In this document: one piece after another, positions 2,131-42,375 of the stretch
How the letters are laid out: the number at the start of each line of letters is the position of its first letter
How positions within the stretch are numbered: position 1 is the first letter of the stretch
Source: an uncultured Blautia sp.
GTDB taxonomy: Bacteria > Bacillota_A > Clostridia > Lachnospirales > Lachnospiraceae
Assembly: GCA_905209435.1 (NCBI GenBank)
Contig: CAJLTE010000010.1
Coordinates: forward strand, 1-57,357
Length of the DNA: 57,357 bases
Direction of reading: 5' to 3'
Position numbers and translations under genes: made by a program
The notes under the pieces: model-generated
The model's database searches: none
What the model was told of the DNA's origin: nothing
The model's input: the letters and a program-made list of their open reading frames with translations, nothing else

Positions 2131-2135
2131 AACCA

Positions 2136-2350
2136 GCGCGAAGCAGCATCTCTCTGCAGGTGAATTTGGAGGGAGCTTAGTAACTCTCAGGCGGAGAAAA
2201 TCCGCGTTATGAAGAAAAACAGCAACTTGTTTGAGCGAAGTTTGCAACGGAGCGAGTTTTGCGTTTTTCTTCATGCTTTTAGCGAATTTTCTCCGCCCTA
2301 GAGTTACTTAGCCCCCGGAACTGAACCTGCAGAGAGATGCTGCTTCGCGC
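2136..2350. repeat. 215-nt near-palindromic intergenic element, copy 1
   Basis: The outer 26 bases beginning GCGCGAAGCAGC at 2136 are exactly complementary to the last 26 ending GCTGCTTCGCGC at 2350. A second paired block follows inside (GTAACTCT with AGAGTTAC, then GGCGGAGAAAAT with ATTTTCTCCGCC) and an inner ATGAAGAAAAA/TTTTTCTTCAT pair. The whole can fold as one long interrupted hairpin. A second copy of identical length lies at 10970-11184. An apparent minus-strand reading frame is conserved between copies, but the conservation is explained by the base pairing. It could be a non-autonomous mobile element or a structured RNA. Confidence 0.85.
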
Positions 2351-2373
2351 GTCCCCCCTCTTTGCAACAAAAA

Positions 2374-2407
2374 AACAAGCCAAAGCCCTCCCGAGCCTCA
2401 GCTTGTT
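2374..2407 (-). terminator. Terminator of the ytfQ-type ABC transporter operon
   Basis: Minus-strand AACAAGC/GCTTGTT stem closing a GC-rich inner region and followed by seven T residues, 14 nt after the last permease stop codon. Confidence 0.75.
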
Positions 2408-2420
2408 CCATAATAATCAT

Positions 2421-3443
2421 TTATTTCCCTTTCTTCTTCATAGAAGCCACAACAGACTGAATAACAATAAAGAAGCAAAGCAATGCAGAAAGAATAATTC
2501 TTGTCCACCAGCTTGATAAAGTACCCTGAGTAGTGATCAGACTTGAAATCGTACCCTTAATCAGAACACCAAACAAAGTACCGATCGGTGTACCAACACC
2601 ACCAGAAAGAAGTGTACCACCAATAACCGCTGATGAAATCGCATCCATTTCAAGACCTTTTGCCTGCTCAACGAAACCGGCACAGCTGTTTAAGCAGAAC
2701 AGGAAACCGCCAAGACCTGCAAGAAAACCATCCAGAACATAAGCATTAAAAATAGTCTTTTTAACATTCAGGCCCATCATCAATGCACTCTGACGGTTAC
2801 CACCGATCGCATAAAGCTTACGTCCAAATTTGCGGTATTTCAGAAGAACTGCAATAATTACTACAACAATCAATGCGATCACAACTGTCGGCGGAATATA
2901 TGCCGGAATAAATTTACCTTTCTTACTGGTTGAACCAAAAGGCATATAGAAACGGTAATTTGCCCATTTCAGGAATAACTCATTCTTGATAGAAATCATA
3001 TCAGTACTGATGATAGCTGTCAGACCACGTCCGAAGAACATACCTGCCAGAGTAACGATGAATGGCTGGATATCCAGATAAGCTACCAGGAAGCCCTGAA
3101 CAATACCAAAAGCAACACCAATAAGCAGTGCAACTAAAACTGCTGCATATGCGTTCACACCTTTGTTCTCCATAAGGTCTGCAAGAACCATACATACAAG
3201 TGCAGTAACAGAACCTACGGAAATATCAATACCACCGGTGATCATAACGATTGTAAGACCACACGCAATAACCAGAAGACCCGCATTAGATACAAACAGG
3301 TTCAGAAACATCTGAGGTTTTGCAAAACCTTTATCAGCAAAAACAATCATACCTGCAACATACATTACTACAAATAATGCGATTGTGATCAGAAGCAGGA
3401 AGCCATTTCCCGTTATTTTCTTTTTCTGTACATTTGCTTTCAT
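2421..3443 (-). CDS. Sugar ABC transporter permease, YjfF-like
   Basis: A 340-residue polytopic membrane protein of the BPD_transp_2 (ribose/galactose) permease family, with the conserved GGIDISVGS motif near residue 70 and about eight to ten hydrophobic helices. It is the fourth gene of a binding protein-ATPase-permease-permease operon laid out like E. coli ytfQ-ytfR-ytfT-yjfF, with which it should form a heterodimeric channel. The start codon overlaps the upstream permease stop codon by one base (TAATG) behind a GGAGG site, showing translational coupling. By homology the substrate is a furanose sugar, but specificity lies in the binding protein. Confidence 0.88.
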   Translation of the reverse strand: MKANVQKKKITGNGFLLLITIALFVVMYVAGMIVFADKGFAKPQMFLNLFVSNAGLLVIACGLTIVMITGGIDISVGSVTALVCMVLADLMENKGVNAYAAVLVALLIGVAFGIVQGFLVAYLDIQPFIVTLAGMFFGRGLTAIISTDMISIKNELFLKWANYRFYMPFGSTSKKGKFIPAYIPPTVVIALIVVVIIAVLLKYRKFGRKLYAIGGNRQSALMMGLNVKKTIFNAYVLDGFLAGLGGFLFCLNSCAGFVEQAKGLEMDAISSAVIGGTLLSGGVGTPIGTLFGVLIKGTISSLITTQGTLSSWWTRIILSALLCFFIVIQSVVASMKKKGK

Positions 3444-10776: not shown

Positions 10777-10969
10777 TCCACTCCTCCTACAGCCCAACCT
10801 CATCGGTTCCCGCTGTACTATATAAACATATTCACTCTGTTCTCCCAACAAATCTGATATAACTTTAATACATGTTGAATTATCAGGCAAGTCATTTTTA
10901 ATTTAAAAATCCCGTTTATCTACCTGCAGTCCCTCCCTTGCCTACAATCTCTCTTCATACCAGCCACCA

Positions 10970-11184
10970 GCGCGAAGCCGCATCTCTCTTCGGGTGAATT
11001 TGGAGGGGGATTAGTAACTCTTAGGCTGGAAAAATATGCGTTATGAAGAAAAATAGCAACCTGTCTGAGCGAAGTCAGCAACGGAGCGAGTTTTGCATTT
11101 TTCTTCATGCCTTTAGCAGATTTTTCCGGCCTTAGAGTTACTTATCCCCCGGAACTGAACCCGCAGAGAGATGCGGCTTCGCGC
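10970..11184. repeat. 215-nt near-palindromic intergenic element, copy 2
   Basis: Same length, orientation and fold as 2136-2350. The outer arms start GCGCGAAGCCGC and end GCGGCTTCGCGC. Differences from copy 1 are often paired: an A-T pair has become C-G and another A-T has become G-C in the outer stem, and an A-T and a G-C are exchanged in the inner stem. It occupies most of the gene-free stretch 10777-11309 and lies about 11 nt beyond the radical SAM terminator. Positions 10777-10969 should contain the response regulator promoter, but I cannot place it with confidence. Confidence 0.85.
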
Positions 11185-11203
11185 GTCCCTCCTGAAAAAA
11201 GCG

Positions 11204-11309: not shown

Positions 11310-12653
11310 TTATTTTGTCTGAAACAATTCCTCCGCCTTCGGTTTCCAATGCTCTGCATAAGCATCACACTTCGCACAAAGATGCTCAACAGATTCCGGA
11401 GACTGTAAGTCTGTAGACTTGGCGCCTGACTCTGCAACCATCTGACGCAGCTTCTGCGGGTTTTCAAGCATTGGACATGGACGAAGCATATTTTCATTAA
11501 ACGGCTGTCCATTATGATATGCCATAAAGATCGGACTCTTCAGCGCTTCAAGCAGAGTATTCTTGTAAATATTTGCATTGGAATAATGAATAAATACACA
11601 AGGATCAACATCACCGTTCGCATTAATATGCAGATAACGTCTTCCTCCTGCAATACATCCGCCAACATACTGCGCATCATTCTGGAAATCCATTCCGAAG
11701 ATTGCTTTTGTAGAACGATATTCTCTGATCTTATGGTACATCTTTTCACGCTGCTCCGGGTTAGGCATTAATTCTACTACAGCATCATTACCTGTCGGCA
11801 TATAATGGAAGAACCATACAAATAATGCACCGCAGTCAATAATATGATCAAAGAACTCTTCACTGCTTACGCTGTCAACATTAGCAGAGGTATAACAGGT
11901 AGATACACCAAACGGAAGTTTGTGAGCTTTCAGAAGTTCCATTGCATGCATAACTTTCTGGTATACACCATCTCCACGACGTCCATCGTTTGCTTCCTCA
12001 GATCCTTCAAGGCTGATAGCAGGTACGAAGTTCTTTACACGGAGCATTTCCTGACAGAATTCTTCATCGATCAGAGTACCATTTGTAAAAGAAAGGAACT
12101 CACAGTCCGGATATTTTTCGCAGATACGCATCAGGTCTTTCTTACGAACCAGCGGTTCACCGCCTGTATATATGTACATATAAGTTCCCATTTTTCTGCC
12201 CTGCTCTACGATAGAACAGATGGTGTCAAAATCAAGATTCAGTTTGTGACCATATTCAGCTGCCCAGCATCCTGTGCAGTGCAGATTACAGGCACTTGTC
12301 GGATCAAGTAGAATTGCCCACGGAACATTACAGTTATTTGCTTCTGCAGTTTCTTCCTGAAGAGCACTTCCCTTTAAGCTGGCATTGATAATAAAGTTTG
12401 TAAAGAATGCCTCACGTACACCCGGATCCAGATCATAGATTCTCAGGATCAGTTTATACCAGTTGCTGTCTTTATCCTGAATCGCATTACGGATTGCATT
12501 TCTCTGTGCTTCATACCATCCGTCCGGTACGAATTTATCTACAAGTTCCATCAGTTTCGGTATATTTACTTCCGGGTCCTTTTCCAGATAACCCAGACCT
12601 GTTTTAACTGCTGCTGCGAGTGCAGCCTGTTTTGCTTTGTCCATTAACTTCAT
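11310..12653 (-). CDS. Radical SAM protein with SPASM/twitch-like C-terminus, function unknown
   Basis: A 447-residue radical SAM enzyme. A helical N-terminal region (1-105) precedes the core, where Cys122, Cys126 and Cys129 form the CxxxCxxC site for the SAM-binding 4Fe-4S cluster in ACNLHCTGC. The GGEP motif follows (TGGEPL). The C-terminal part has further cysteines (GGCIAGG, DPCVF, RPCPM, LCAKC), as expected for a SPASM or twitch domain carrying auxiliary clusters. It starts behind AAGGAGGAG, 148 nt after a DUF308 gene on the same strand, and has its own terminator. No peptide precursor or biosynthetic partner is encoded nearby, so the substrate cannot be named; peptide or small-molecule modification are both possible. 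Confidence 0.85.
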   Translation of the reverse strand: MKLMDKAKQAALAAAVKTGLGYLEKDPEVNIPKLMELVDKFVPDGWYEAQRNAIRNAIQDKDSNWYKLILRIYDLDPGVREAFFTNFIINASLKGSALQEETAEANNCNVPWAILLDPTSACNLHCTGCWAAEYGHKLNLDFDTICSIVEQGRKMGTYMYIYTGGEPLVRKKDLMRICEKYPDCEFLSFTNGTLIDEEFCQEMLRVKNFVPAISLEGSEEANDGRRGDGVYQKVMHAMELLKAHKLPFGVSTCYTSANVDSVSSEEFFDHIIDCGALFVWFFHYMPTGNDAVVELMPNPEQREKMYHKIREYRSTKAIFGMDFQNDAQYVGGCIAGGRRYLHINANGDVDPCVFIHYSNANIYKNTLLEALKSPIFMAYHNGQPFNENMLRPCPMLENPQKLRQMVAESGAKSTDLQSPESVEHLCAKCDAYAEHWKPKAEELFQTK

Positions 12654-30395: not shown

Positions 30396-32117
30396 TTAGA
30401 ACAGACTGTAAAGCTGTGTCAGCGGAAGTTTTTCTGCCGGTTTGGAAGTAATCTCTTCCCCGTCAACTGTAACCTTATAAGTTTCCGGATCTACAGTCAG
30501 TTCCGGTGTTCTGTCGTTAAATACCATGTCTTTTTTGCTGATGTTTCGGCATCCTTTTACAGGTACGACCGTTTTCTCAAGACCGTATTTCTCTTTTACG
30601 TTCTCATCCATAGCAGCCTGGGATACGAATGTCAGGCAAGCTTCGTTCTTAGCTTTTCCATGAGCTGCAAACATTGGCTGATAGAGAACCGGCTGTGTAG
30701 TCGGAATGGATGCATTTGCATCGCCCATCTTAGATGCAATGATCATACCGCCTTTGATGATAATATCCGGTTTTGCACCAAAGAATACAGGATTCCAGAG
30801 AACGAGATCTGCGAATTTACCTTCTTCTACAGAGCCCACATACTGGGAAATACCGTGTGTGATCGCCGGGTTGATGGTATATTTGGAGATATAACGTTTT
30901 ACACGGAAGTTGTCATTGTCATGTCCTGCATCTTCCGGAAGTGCACCTCTCTCATCTTTCATCTTACTTGCTGTCTGCCAGGTACGTGTGATAACCTCAC
31001 CTACACGTCCCATAGCCTGAGAGTCAGAGCTCATCATACTGAAGATACCCATATCATGAAGAACATCCTCTGCTGCGATTGTCTCAGGACGGATTCGGGA
31101 ATCTGCAAATGCAACATCTTCCGGAATTCTCTTGTCAAGGTGATGGCAAACCATCAGCATATCCAGATGCTCATCCAGAGTGTTTACTGTATATGGCATT
31201 GTAGGGTTTGTGGAGGATGGCAGTACGTTCGGAGCTGCTGCTGCGCGGATGATATCCGGTGCATGTCCACCGCCTGCACCCTCTGTATGATAAGTATGGA
31301 TGGTTCTGCCGCCGATAGCTGCAAGTGTATCTTCTACACATCCACCTTCATTTAATGTGTCTGTATGGATGGCAACCTGTACGTCATATTCATCTGCCAC
31401 ATTCAGACAGTGATTGATAACTGCAGGTGTTGCACCCCAGTCCTCATGGATCTTCAGTCCCATAGCTCCGGCCTTGACCTGCTCAATGAGAGGAGCTTCG
31501 TCTGAGCAGTTACCTTTTCCAAGGAAACCTAAGTTCATCGGGTATTCCTCGGCTGCCTTTAACATCATTTTTAAGTTCCATGGTCCAGGTGTACAGGTAG
31601 TTGCGTTTGTACCGTCTGCAGGGCCTGTACCACCACCGATCATAGTAGTTACACCGCTGTATAATGCACAGTCGATCTGCTGTGGGCTGATGAAATGGAT
31701 ATGGGTATCAATTCCACCTGCAGTTACGATCATTCCCTCTCCTGCAAGTGCTTCTGTAGATGCGCCCACTGTCATTCCAGGTGTGACGCCATCCATGATA
31801 TCCGGGTTTCCGGCTTTACCGATTCCTGCGATCTTGCCGTCTTTGATACCGATATCTGCTTTTACGATTCCTGTAGAGTCTATGATCAATGCATTGGTAA
31901 TTACCAGATCCAGATCTCCGTCTTTGCTGCAGGTTTTTACAGACTGTCCCATACCGTCACGGATTGTCTTGCCGCCGCCGAACTTTACTTCGTCTCCATA
32001 GGTTGTATAATCTTTTTCTACCTCGATCACAAGGCTTGTATCTGCCAGACGTACCTTATCTCCTGTAGTCGGGCCATACATTGCCGCATATTTGCTTCCG
32101 GAAATTTTTGTACTCAT
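30396..32117 (-). CDS. ureC: Urease alpha subunit UreC
   Basis: A 573-residue catalytic subunit of urease (urea + H2O to two NH3 + CO2). All active-site residues are in place: nickel ligands His139 and His141 (THIHF), the carbamylated Lys222 ([11 protein letters not shown]), His251 (AIHTDTLNE), His277 (HTEGAGGGH), catalytic-flap Cys324-His325-His326 (MVCHHLD) and Asp365 (SSDSQAMGR). The length is typical. It is the third gene of ureABCIEFGD and starts behind AAGGAGGG. Confidence 0.98.
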
Positions 32118-42139: not shown

Positions 42140-42185
42140 ATTTTCGTTTCCTTTTACAACTTTATAATCAATTATACATAATATC

Positions 42186-42375
42186 AGGGTCAAAAGATCA
42201 AAAAGCCGTTCGTGCTTGCACGATAAGGCGTTTGAACTTGGGACCCGCCAAACATGAGGAAGTAGCGATTTACGCAGTAAATCTGCGAATTCCAAATGTT
42301 TGAGAATTGCGAGAGCTGCTTAGCAGCGGAGCAATTCGTAGATATCAAGTTAGGGCCAAAATACCTTTTGACCCT
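42186..42375 (-). repeat. 190-nt multi-stem element in the lacI leader
   Basis: The element is bounded by perfect 11-bp inverted repeats AGGGTCAAAAG (42186) and CTTTTGACCCT (42375). Inside, read on the minus strand, are TTAGGG/CCCTAA, GAATTGC[GCTGC/GCAGC]GCAATTC, CAAACAT[GATTTAC/GTAAATC]ATGTTTG and a TCGTGC-AA-GCACGA stem ending in GGCTTTTTG. The left boundary repeat can pair either with its near neighbour TTTTGGCCCTAA or with the far boundary, so two folds compete. It lies entirely between the predicted lacI promoter and start codon. It may be a mobile repeat, a structured leader or an ncRNA. Confidence 0.7.

What the first reader, a model, noticed from the sequence alone, without database searches (positions are those of the whole stretch)
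2136..2350. 215-nt giant hairpin element with compensatory changes between two copies
Copies at 2136-2350 and 10970-11184 have the same length and pair end to end. By hand alignment at least four base pairs differ by double compensatory changes: outer stem A-T to C-G and A-T to G-C, inner stem A-T to G-C and G-C to A-T. One mismatch becomes a pair and one pair becomes a wobble. Selection on the fold, in RNA or single-stranded DNA, explains this better than coding. It could be a non-autonomous mobile element, or a new structured RNA or DNA family of Lachnospiraceae.
Basis: seen in the sequence. Interest (0 to 1): 0.72.

Follow-up and report, generated by a model that had tools for sequence, protein, structure and literature searches.

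The report
Mobile giant DNA hairpins in Blautia
The two look-alike hairpins belong to a family of roughly 200-base folded repeats, scattered in up to about 40 copies per genome in gut bacteria of the Blautia group, whose paired bases change together from copy to copy and which behave like small mobile elements moved by an unknown enzyme.

Summary
Window copies 2136-2350 and 10970-11184 fold end to end and differ at 8 consensus pairs by double compensatory changes, 1 by a wobble and 4 by breaks. They belong to a large family: 40 copies in one Blautia genome, carried by 12 of 64 Blautia genomes, with model matches in 37 of 397 Lachnospiraceae genomes. In 58 distinct copies, 61 of 72 pairs show double changes and 93.6% of cells pair, against 64.4% shuffled and 34-48% slid. 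Rfam has no fitting family.

Copies mostly share only the hairpin and about 10 flanking bases. Between genomes a site can be empty, deleted or hold a different copy. Orientation follows replication direction. Best reading: a non-autonomous mobile element that spreads as a folded single strand. The enzyme is unidentified: IS200/REP-type transposase and reverse transcriptase show no family-wide association. Settled copies show no clear preference for pair-keeping changes, though they change more slowly than flanks. RNA versus single-stranded DNA is unresolved.

The parts
2136..2350 (+). Hairpin copy 1, in the orientation with GCGTTAT on the left arm
   Evidence: Fold z -17.2; family alignment
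2134..2135 (+). CA at the left foot of copy 1
   Evidence: Sequence; CA was imposed by my boundary search in other copies
2351..2355 (+). GTCCC at the right foot of copy 1
   Evidence: Sequence; GT was imposed by my boundary search in other copies, the C at +4 is in 67 of 68 loci
2187..2300 (+). Core of copy 1 matched by family model R1
   Evidence: 87.1 bits, E 9.9e-19; the sequence was among those the model was built from
10970..11184 (+). Hairpin copy 2, same orientation
   Evidence: Fold z -13.8; family alignment
10968..10969 (+). CA at the left foot of copy 2
   Evidence: Sequence
11185..11189 (+). GTCCC at the right foot of copy 2
   Evidence: Sequence
11021..11134 (+). Core of copy 2 matched by family model R1
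   Evidence: 96.0 bits, E 6.2e-21; the sequence was among those the model was built from
2368..2407 (-). Terminator-like inverted repeat with a T run (minus strand) between the end of the gene 2421-3443 and copy 1
   Evidence: Read by eye; not scored
11203..11249 (-). Terminator-like inverted repeat with a T run (minus strand) between the end of the gene 11310-12653 and copy 2
   Evidence: Read by eye; not scored

Best explanation
A family of non-autonomous mobile elements. Shown: each copy is an imperfect palindrome, about 200-220 nt in most Blautia copies, with a fixed architecture: a sequence-variable outer stem, an ATTTGCAG/CGAAACC internal loop, two CTTAG-on-CTTAG T.T mismatches about one helical turn apart, a GTT/CTTTTA internal loop, a variable inner stem and an apical CTGTCTGAGC...GCGAGTTT. 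Copies are dispersed, mostly share little beyond the hairpin, are present or absent between genomes, decay by internal deletion, are swapped for other copies at the same site, and are oriented with replication. Inferred: mobilisation needs one strand to fold; a trans-acting enzyme reads the internal loops and the foot (CA|GC...GC|GTCC) rather than stem sequence and inserts the element near gene 3' ends during replication; selection on pairing acts mainly on spreading copies. The enzyme is unknown. A single-strand-specific (HUH-like) nuclease is my first guess, at about 0.3.
For: Dispersed multicopy family. Covariation: 61 of 72 pairs with double changes, 93.6% of cells paired against 64.4% shuffled and 34-48% slid. 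Most within-genome similarity stops at the hairpin edges and 68 loci with unrelated flanks share only about 10 nt. Empty site for L100 in G001, and no element at the L134 site in G019 and G046 or at the L073 site in G016. Internal deletions at 3 sites. Whole-module replacement at 2 of 17 matched sites. Orientation agrees with replication direction: 30 of 40 in G064, and 15 of 16 at convergent sites. Outer-stem sequence differs completely between copies while pairing holds, which argues for recognition of structure.
Against: No mobilising enzyme found: Y1 transposase in 10 of 24 carriers and 25 of 56 non-carriers, reverse transcriptase in 17 of 24 and 34 of 56; 7 of 24 carriers, including G363 with at least 9 copies, show neither at the thresholds used. 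Only one reasonably clean empty site, and its right junction is blurred. Elements change more slowly than flanks in 11 of 15 close site pairs, which could mean host constraint. Some G011 copies share over 600 bp, so not every repeat unit is the bare hairpin. Strand clues conflict.
Confidence: 0.7

Rival explanations
1. A structured non-coding RNA family with a host function (regulatory RNA or 3' UTR element), multiplied by duplication. The internal loops bind a protein and the stems covary as in any structured RNA.
For: Very strong covariation with invariant loops. G.T exceeds A.C in the middle and core helices, 86 against 33, as expected if the '+' strand folds. Elements change more slowly than flanks, 52 of 3146 against 2015 of 67485 positions. 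Genes on the GTCCC side end toward the element in 61 of 87 crude calls.
Against: No promoter or terminator motif shared in the flanks of 68 loci. The G.T excess sits in a few columns: without the 12 columns with more than 4 such cells it is 54 against 49, and in the outer stem it is 33 against 37. Single changes in settled copies break pairs 17 times and keep them 13 times, and the loops change too (13 of 588 positions). Sites are lost or truncated in sister genomes. No Rfam match above a gathering score at the element.
Confidence: 0.17
2. The double changes are mutational, not selected: an extruded hairpin lets replication or repair copy one arm from the other, so long palindromes stay perfect while drifting. 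Exchange between copies does the rest.
For: 4 double changes among 15 close site pairs, more than independent hits would give by my estimate. Single-sided kept changes are rare beside double ones in every divergence class. Whole modules are replaced symmetrically.
Against: T.T and G.A mismatches and the asymmetric loops are not corrected and stay nearly invariant. Close site pairs mostly show single-sided changes, 30 against 4 double. Does not by itself explain dispersal or a fixed architecture across genera.
Confidence: 0.1
3. A classical MITE cut and pasted by a DDE transposase in trans through its terminal inverted repeats.
For: Small, dispersed, palindromic, no gene inside.
Against: Terminal sequences differ completely between copies in one genome; only CA|GC...GC|GTCC is shared. 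No target-site duplication was visible at the one empty site.
Confidence: 0.03

Closest known systems
REP elements / BIMEs with TnpA_REP (RAYT) transposases
   Same: Dispersed intergenic palindromes with unpaired bases in the stem, a short conserved motif at the foot and no gene inside; inverted neighbour pairs also occur here. REP features from passages of PMC6006769 and PMC8266576.
   Different: REPs are 20-65 nt by those passages, here 200 nt and more; four or more conserved internal features instead of one bulge; foot motif GGGAC (minus strand) instead of GTAG; no Y1 gene association across the family.
IS200/IS605 elements and their single-strand transposition
   Same: Recognition of hairpins, and strand bias tied to the replication fork (passages of PMC6006769), resemble what is seen here.
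   Different: No transposase gene inside; one giant hairpin instead of two small subterminal ones; 7 carriers have neither Y1 nor reverse transcriptase at the thresholds used.
MITEs
   Same: Non-autonomous dispersed palindromes of 100-200 bp (recalled).
   Different: MITEs keep constant terminal repeats (recalled); here the termini are hypervariable.
Integron attC sites
   Same: Variable-sequence hairpins read by structure and unpaired bases (recalled).
   Different: Shorter, tied to cassette genes and an integrase (recalled); no recurrent neighbour gene that looks like a recombinase was seen here.

Membership tests
REP / REPtron | Palindrome of about 20-65 nt | tested here: not met
   Hairpins are about 200-220 nt in most copies; REP size
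REP / REPtron | GTAG-like tetranucleotide 5' of the hairpin foot | tested here: not met
   Minus strand reads G(G)GGAC at the foot
REP / REPtron | Y1 (TnpA) gene in the genome | tested here: not met
   10 of 24 carriers and 25 of 56 non-carriers at E 1e-20; within Blautia 10 of 12 carriers against 11 of 52 others at E under 1e-25
IS200/IS605-type single-strand mobility | Orientation tied to the replication fork | tested here: met
   30 of 40 in G064; 15 of 16 at convergent sites; 15 of 16 and 17 of 18 in two blocks in G019 and G011 C4 (borders by eye)
IS200/IS605-type single-strand mobility | Insertion without target duplication | tested here: inconclusive
   One empty site, right junction blurred
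IS200/IS605-type single-strand mobility | Demonstrated movement or mobilising enzyme | not testable with these tools
   Needs an experiment
MITE (DDE) | Constant terminal inverted repeats | tested here: not met
   Outer stem differs wholly between copies
Rfam RNA families | Match above gathering score | tested here: not met
   Window and 7 Blautia loci: no match at the element above a gathering score; miRNA precursor models hit it below theirs, best E 0.0015
Structured RNA | Compensatory change in the paired positions | tested here: met
   does not distinguish RNA from single-stranded DNA
Structured RNA | Transcribed as a discrete RNA | not testable with these tools
   No expression data; no shared promoter in flanks

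The most novel reading that the evidence does not exclude
A new class of mobile element that spreads only as a giant folded single strand. It is recognised by a fixed set of internal loops while its stems are free to change as long as both arms change together, and it is inserted in step with the replication fork by an enzyme that is neither a Y1 transposase nor a reverse transcriptase. Distant relatives on phage contigs and in other phyla share the apical CTGTYTGAGC...GCGAGTTT module.
Probability: 0.3. Interest if true: 0.82.

Novelty: new variant of a known kind. Interest (0 to 1): 0.66.

Why it matters
It is a repeat family in common human gut bacteria that occupies many intergenic regions, with no Rfam match in the loci tested and no description in the papers searched. 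The contrast between strict pairing across copies and loose pairing in settled ones offers a natural test of what a single-strand mobilising enzyme must see. It also warns that strong covariation need not mean a host RNA function.

Tried and rejected
Rfam: gathering threshold on the window; relaxed threshold on 7 Blautia loci (miRNA models below their gathering scores at the element, a T-box outside it) and on 6 relatives (Bp1_684 on one second hairpin). Two exact patterns in IMG/VR: no match. Plasmids: no match with two Blautia copies.

Y1 transposase as the mobiliser: attractive inside Blautia (10 of 12 carriers against 11 of 52 others) but not outside (10 of 24 against 25 of 56). In the 8 sampled Y1 loci the apical motif is absent. 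Reverse transcriptase: 17 of 24 against 34 of 56, p 0.45 (one search used a miscount, 18 and 33). Non-carrier here means no match of R1 at E 1e-4 with at most 9 candidates scored, so some may be carriers. DUF559 nuclease, a guess from memory: 1 weak match in 80 genomes. Recurrent neighbour gene: the largest protein clusters looked to me like a common ABC transporter and reading frames over rRNA genes (judged by eye). Genes between close opposite-oriented pairs look like ordinary host genes by eye.

Polyangium match L003 looks like coding DNA and was set aside as chance. The G012, G031 and G041 matches lack the apical motif and were not counted. L222, L224 and L225 look like chance matches in coding DNA.

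Literature: searches showed no description of the family; only open-licence PMC text was searched. Two papers were seen as passages (PMC6006769, PMC8266576); the others as listings only.

Rows dropped: one search found 88 places; 79 had clean ends; L101, L128 and L136 were left out and copies over 93% alike merged, giving 59; L045 (276 nt) was left out, giving 58. The model used 47 of the 58. The close-site count uses 15 of 17 site pairs; the two left out are the swapped ones. The convergent-site count uses 16 of the 28 '>E<' cases: 3 orthologous repeats were removed, 7 had no skew value, and L104 and L107 were left out although both agree. Of the 30 loci returned, 24 were displayed as folds.

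Full report
WHAT IS THERE. They fold end to end far better than shuffles, z -17.2 and -13.8, and are 88% identical. On the family structure they share 59 of 72 pairs unchanged, with 8 double compensatory changes, 1 single change that stays paired and 4 broken pairs. Rfam has nothing at either place.

SOURCE. No whole genome is held for the window. A pattern from the apical region hit Blautia wexlerae MSK.20.46 (6 loci) and Blautia sp. MSJ-9 (2 loci), plus one place in Polyangium that I count as chance. These two Blautia records are genomes G001 and G002. The pieces of the window that align to the stretch of genome G064 that I fetched are 88.6% identical over 30.5 kb in 12 pieces, so the window is a relative of that genome rather than the same species. 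Both window sites are filled in G064, 8.8 kb apart. In MSJ-9 both sites hold only remnants (L024 and L026, matched by eye).

FAMILY. Of 64 Blautia genomes, 15 match a core pattern and 12 of them carry the real motif; the reversed control pattern gave 0. With the core model R1 (106 positions) G064 has 40 copies, G011 21, G019 16 and the distant genome G110 10. R1 matches 37 of 397 Lachnospiraceae genomes at E 1e-4, with at most 9 candidates scored per genome. In a phylum-wide sample 4 of 398 match at E 1e-5: G001 itself, one genome already in the family sample, and two weak ones. The 24 of 30 distant loci that I displayed keep the layout, with small motif variants and an outer stem of about 50 bp in L203.

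ARCHITECTURE ('+' orientation). CA | outer stem of about 26-28 bp in most, freely variable | ATTTGCAG opposite CGAAACC | 6-7 bp | CTTAG opposite CTTAG with a central T.T, twice, about one helical turn apart | about 17 bp | GTT opposite CTTTTA | inner stem, freely variable | apical CTGTCTGAGC-loop-GCGAGTTT | back | GTCCC. In 58 distinct copies, 61 of 72 pairs have double changes and 93.6% of cells pair; 500 shuffles average 64.4% and none reaches the observed value; sliding the partner gives 34-48%. Copies are related, so the shuffle count is not a probability. The size of the effect and the slid control carry the weight.

BOUNDARIES. Most pairs of copies in one genome are alike only over the hairpin and its immediate edges (150 of 705 rows shown). 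Exceptions: L128 and L131 in G011 share 642 bp, two G047 copies share 370 bp and two G018 copies 352 bp. Across 68 loci with unrelated flanks, information stays below 0.4 bits beyond 10 nt on the left and 8 nt on the right, with a weak shortage of G at -15 to -20. CA and GT were imposed by my boundary search; the A at -8 (59 of 68) and the C at +4 (67 of 68) were not. No shared promoter or terminator motif appears in the 40 nt examined on either side.

MOBILITY AND DECAY. One site filled in G064 (L100) is empty in G001 and keeps the CAACAACCA edge; about 35 nt of right flank do not align cleanly, so the junction is blurred. G019 and G046 lack the L134 element of G011 and have what looks like an ordinary terminator there. 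G016 lacks the L073 element. Three sites show internal deletion of the core (L158, L148, L171). Of 17 matched G064-G001 sites, two hold elements far more diverged than their flanks. In L087/L115 the outer stem is kept and the core replaced; in L075/L118 the core is kept and the outer stem replaced on both arms. This is turnover or exchange, not slow drift.

DOES SELECTION SEE SETTLED COPIES? In the 15 other site pairs the element differs at 52 of 3146 positions, against 2015 of 67485 in flanks; it is slower than its flank in 11 and faster in 4. That counts against pure neutrality. But single changes break pairs 17 times and keep them 13 times, near what I would expect by chance (an estimate), and the otherwise invariant loops change too, at 13 of 588 positions. 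There are also 4 double changes. My reading is that pairing and loops are policed mainly in the copies that spread.

ORIENTATION. In G064 30 of 40 copies point the same way relative to replication, with the switch set at 2.2 Mb because local skew is positive in 12 of 13 fetched loci below 2.0 Mb and negative in all from 2.3 Mb on. In G019 and on G011 contig C4, 15 of 16 and 17 of 18 fall into two orientation blocks; borders were set by eye but agree with local skew. Over the fetched loci, 43 of 54 elements follow local skew. Because leading-strand genes confound this, I looked at sites between convergent genes: 15 of 16 follow the skew (crude gene calls). The gene on the GTCCC side ends toward the element in 61 of 87 cases. 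A strict terminator scan finds 8 of 72 on that side, 3 of 72 on the other and 0.7 expected, so the terminator link is weakly measured. Six neighbour pairs closer than 5 kb in G064 are all in opposite orientation.

WHICH STRAND, WHICH ACID? In the middle and core helices G.T mismatches exceed A.C, 86 against 33, favouring the '+' strand as the folded one. In the outer stem they are equal, 33 against 37, and without the 12 most affected columns the total is 54 against 49. Replication orientation would put the '-' strand on the lagging template (my deduction). These clues disagree, and I leave it open.

ENZYME. Not found. Y1 transposase and reverse transcriptase show no family-wide association. 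Seven of 24 carriers have neither at the thresholds used (E 1e-20 and 1e-10), among them G363 with at least 9 copies.

RELATIVES FURTHER OUT. Four IMG/VR contigs (L220, L221, L223, L226) carry the apical module, each with a second hairpin downstream by eye, of differing sequence. R1 scores them weakly: E 2.3e-4 for L226, 0.0095 for L223, 0.011 for L221, 0.19 for L220. L221 encodes phage portal, terminase and capsid proteins by Pfam; L226 looks like phage DNA from its reading frames only. Hairpins like the second one of L226 occur in 8 plasmid records at 39 places, mostly Caballeronia and also Ilyobacter, and one matches the Rfam sRNA family Bp1_684. A cross-phylum link is suggestive, not shown.

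VERDICT. Real, a coherent large family, not described in what I could search, and best read as a non-autonomous mobile hairpin with an unknown mover.

Noticed in passing
window 31669-31966: Rfam 5_ureB_sRNA (a urease antisense RNA family) matches at 131 bits. Probably it only reflects a conserved urease gene on the other strand; I did not check the gene.
   Followed up: no
window 42179-42347: Rfam Clostridiales-1 sRNA match, 117 bits.
   Followed up: no
L096, just inside the right arm of its hairpin; also L001 about 475-640: A second palindromic repeat of about 160 nt (TATAGCAGTCC...GCTATAA) sits inside the right arm of this hairpin copy in G064; the same site in G001 (L110) lacks it. Pieces of it recur in the flanks of other copies and at many places in Blautia genomes (query bases 1321-1374).
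   Followed up: partly
   Followed up: no
L001 (MT839563.1): A 'Bacteriophage sp.' faecal scaffold whose flank resembles a B. wexlerae chromosomal site (L029); probably bacterial DNA filed as phage (judged by eye).
   Followed up: partly
right flanks of L050, L091, L131, L140: Short tandem duplications of the right foot and adjoining flank (for example CTATGCGTCCCTTTT repeated in L091).
   Followed up: no
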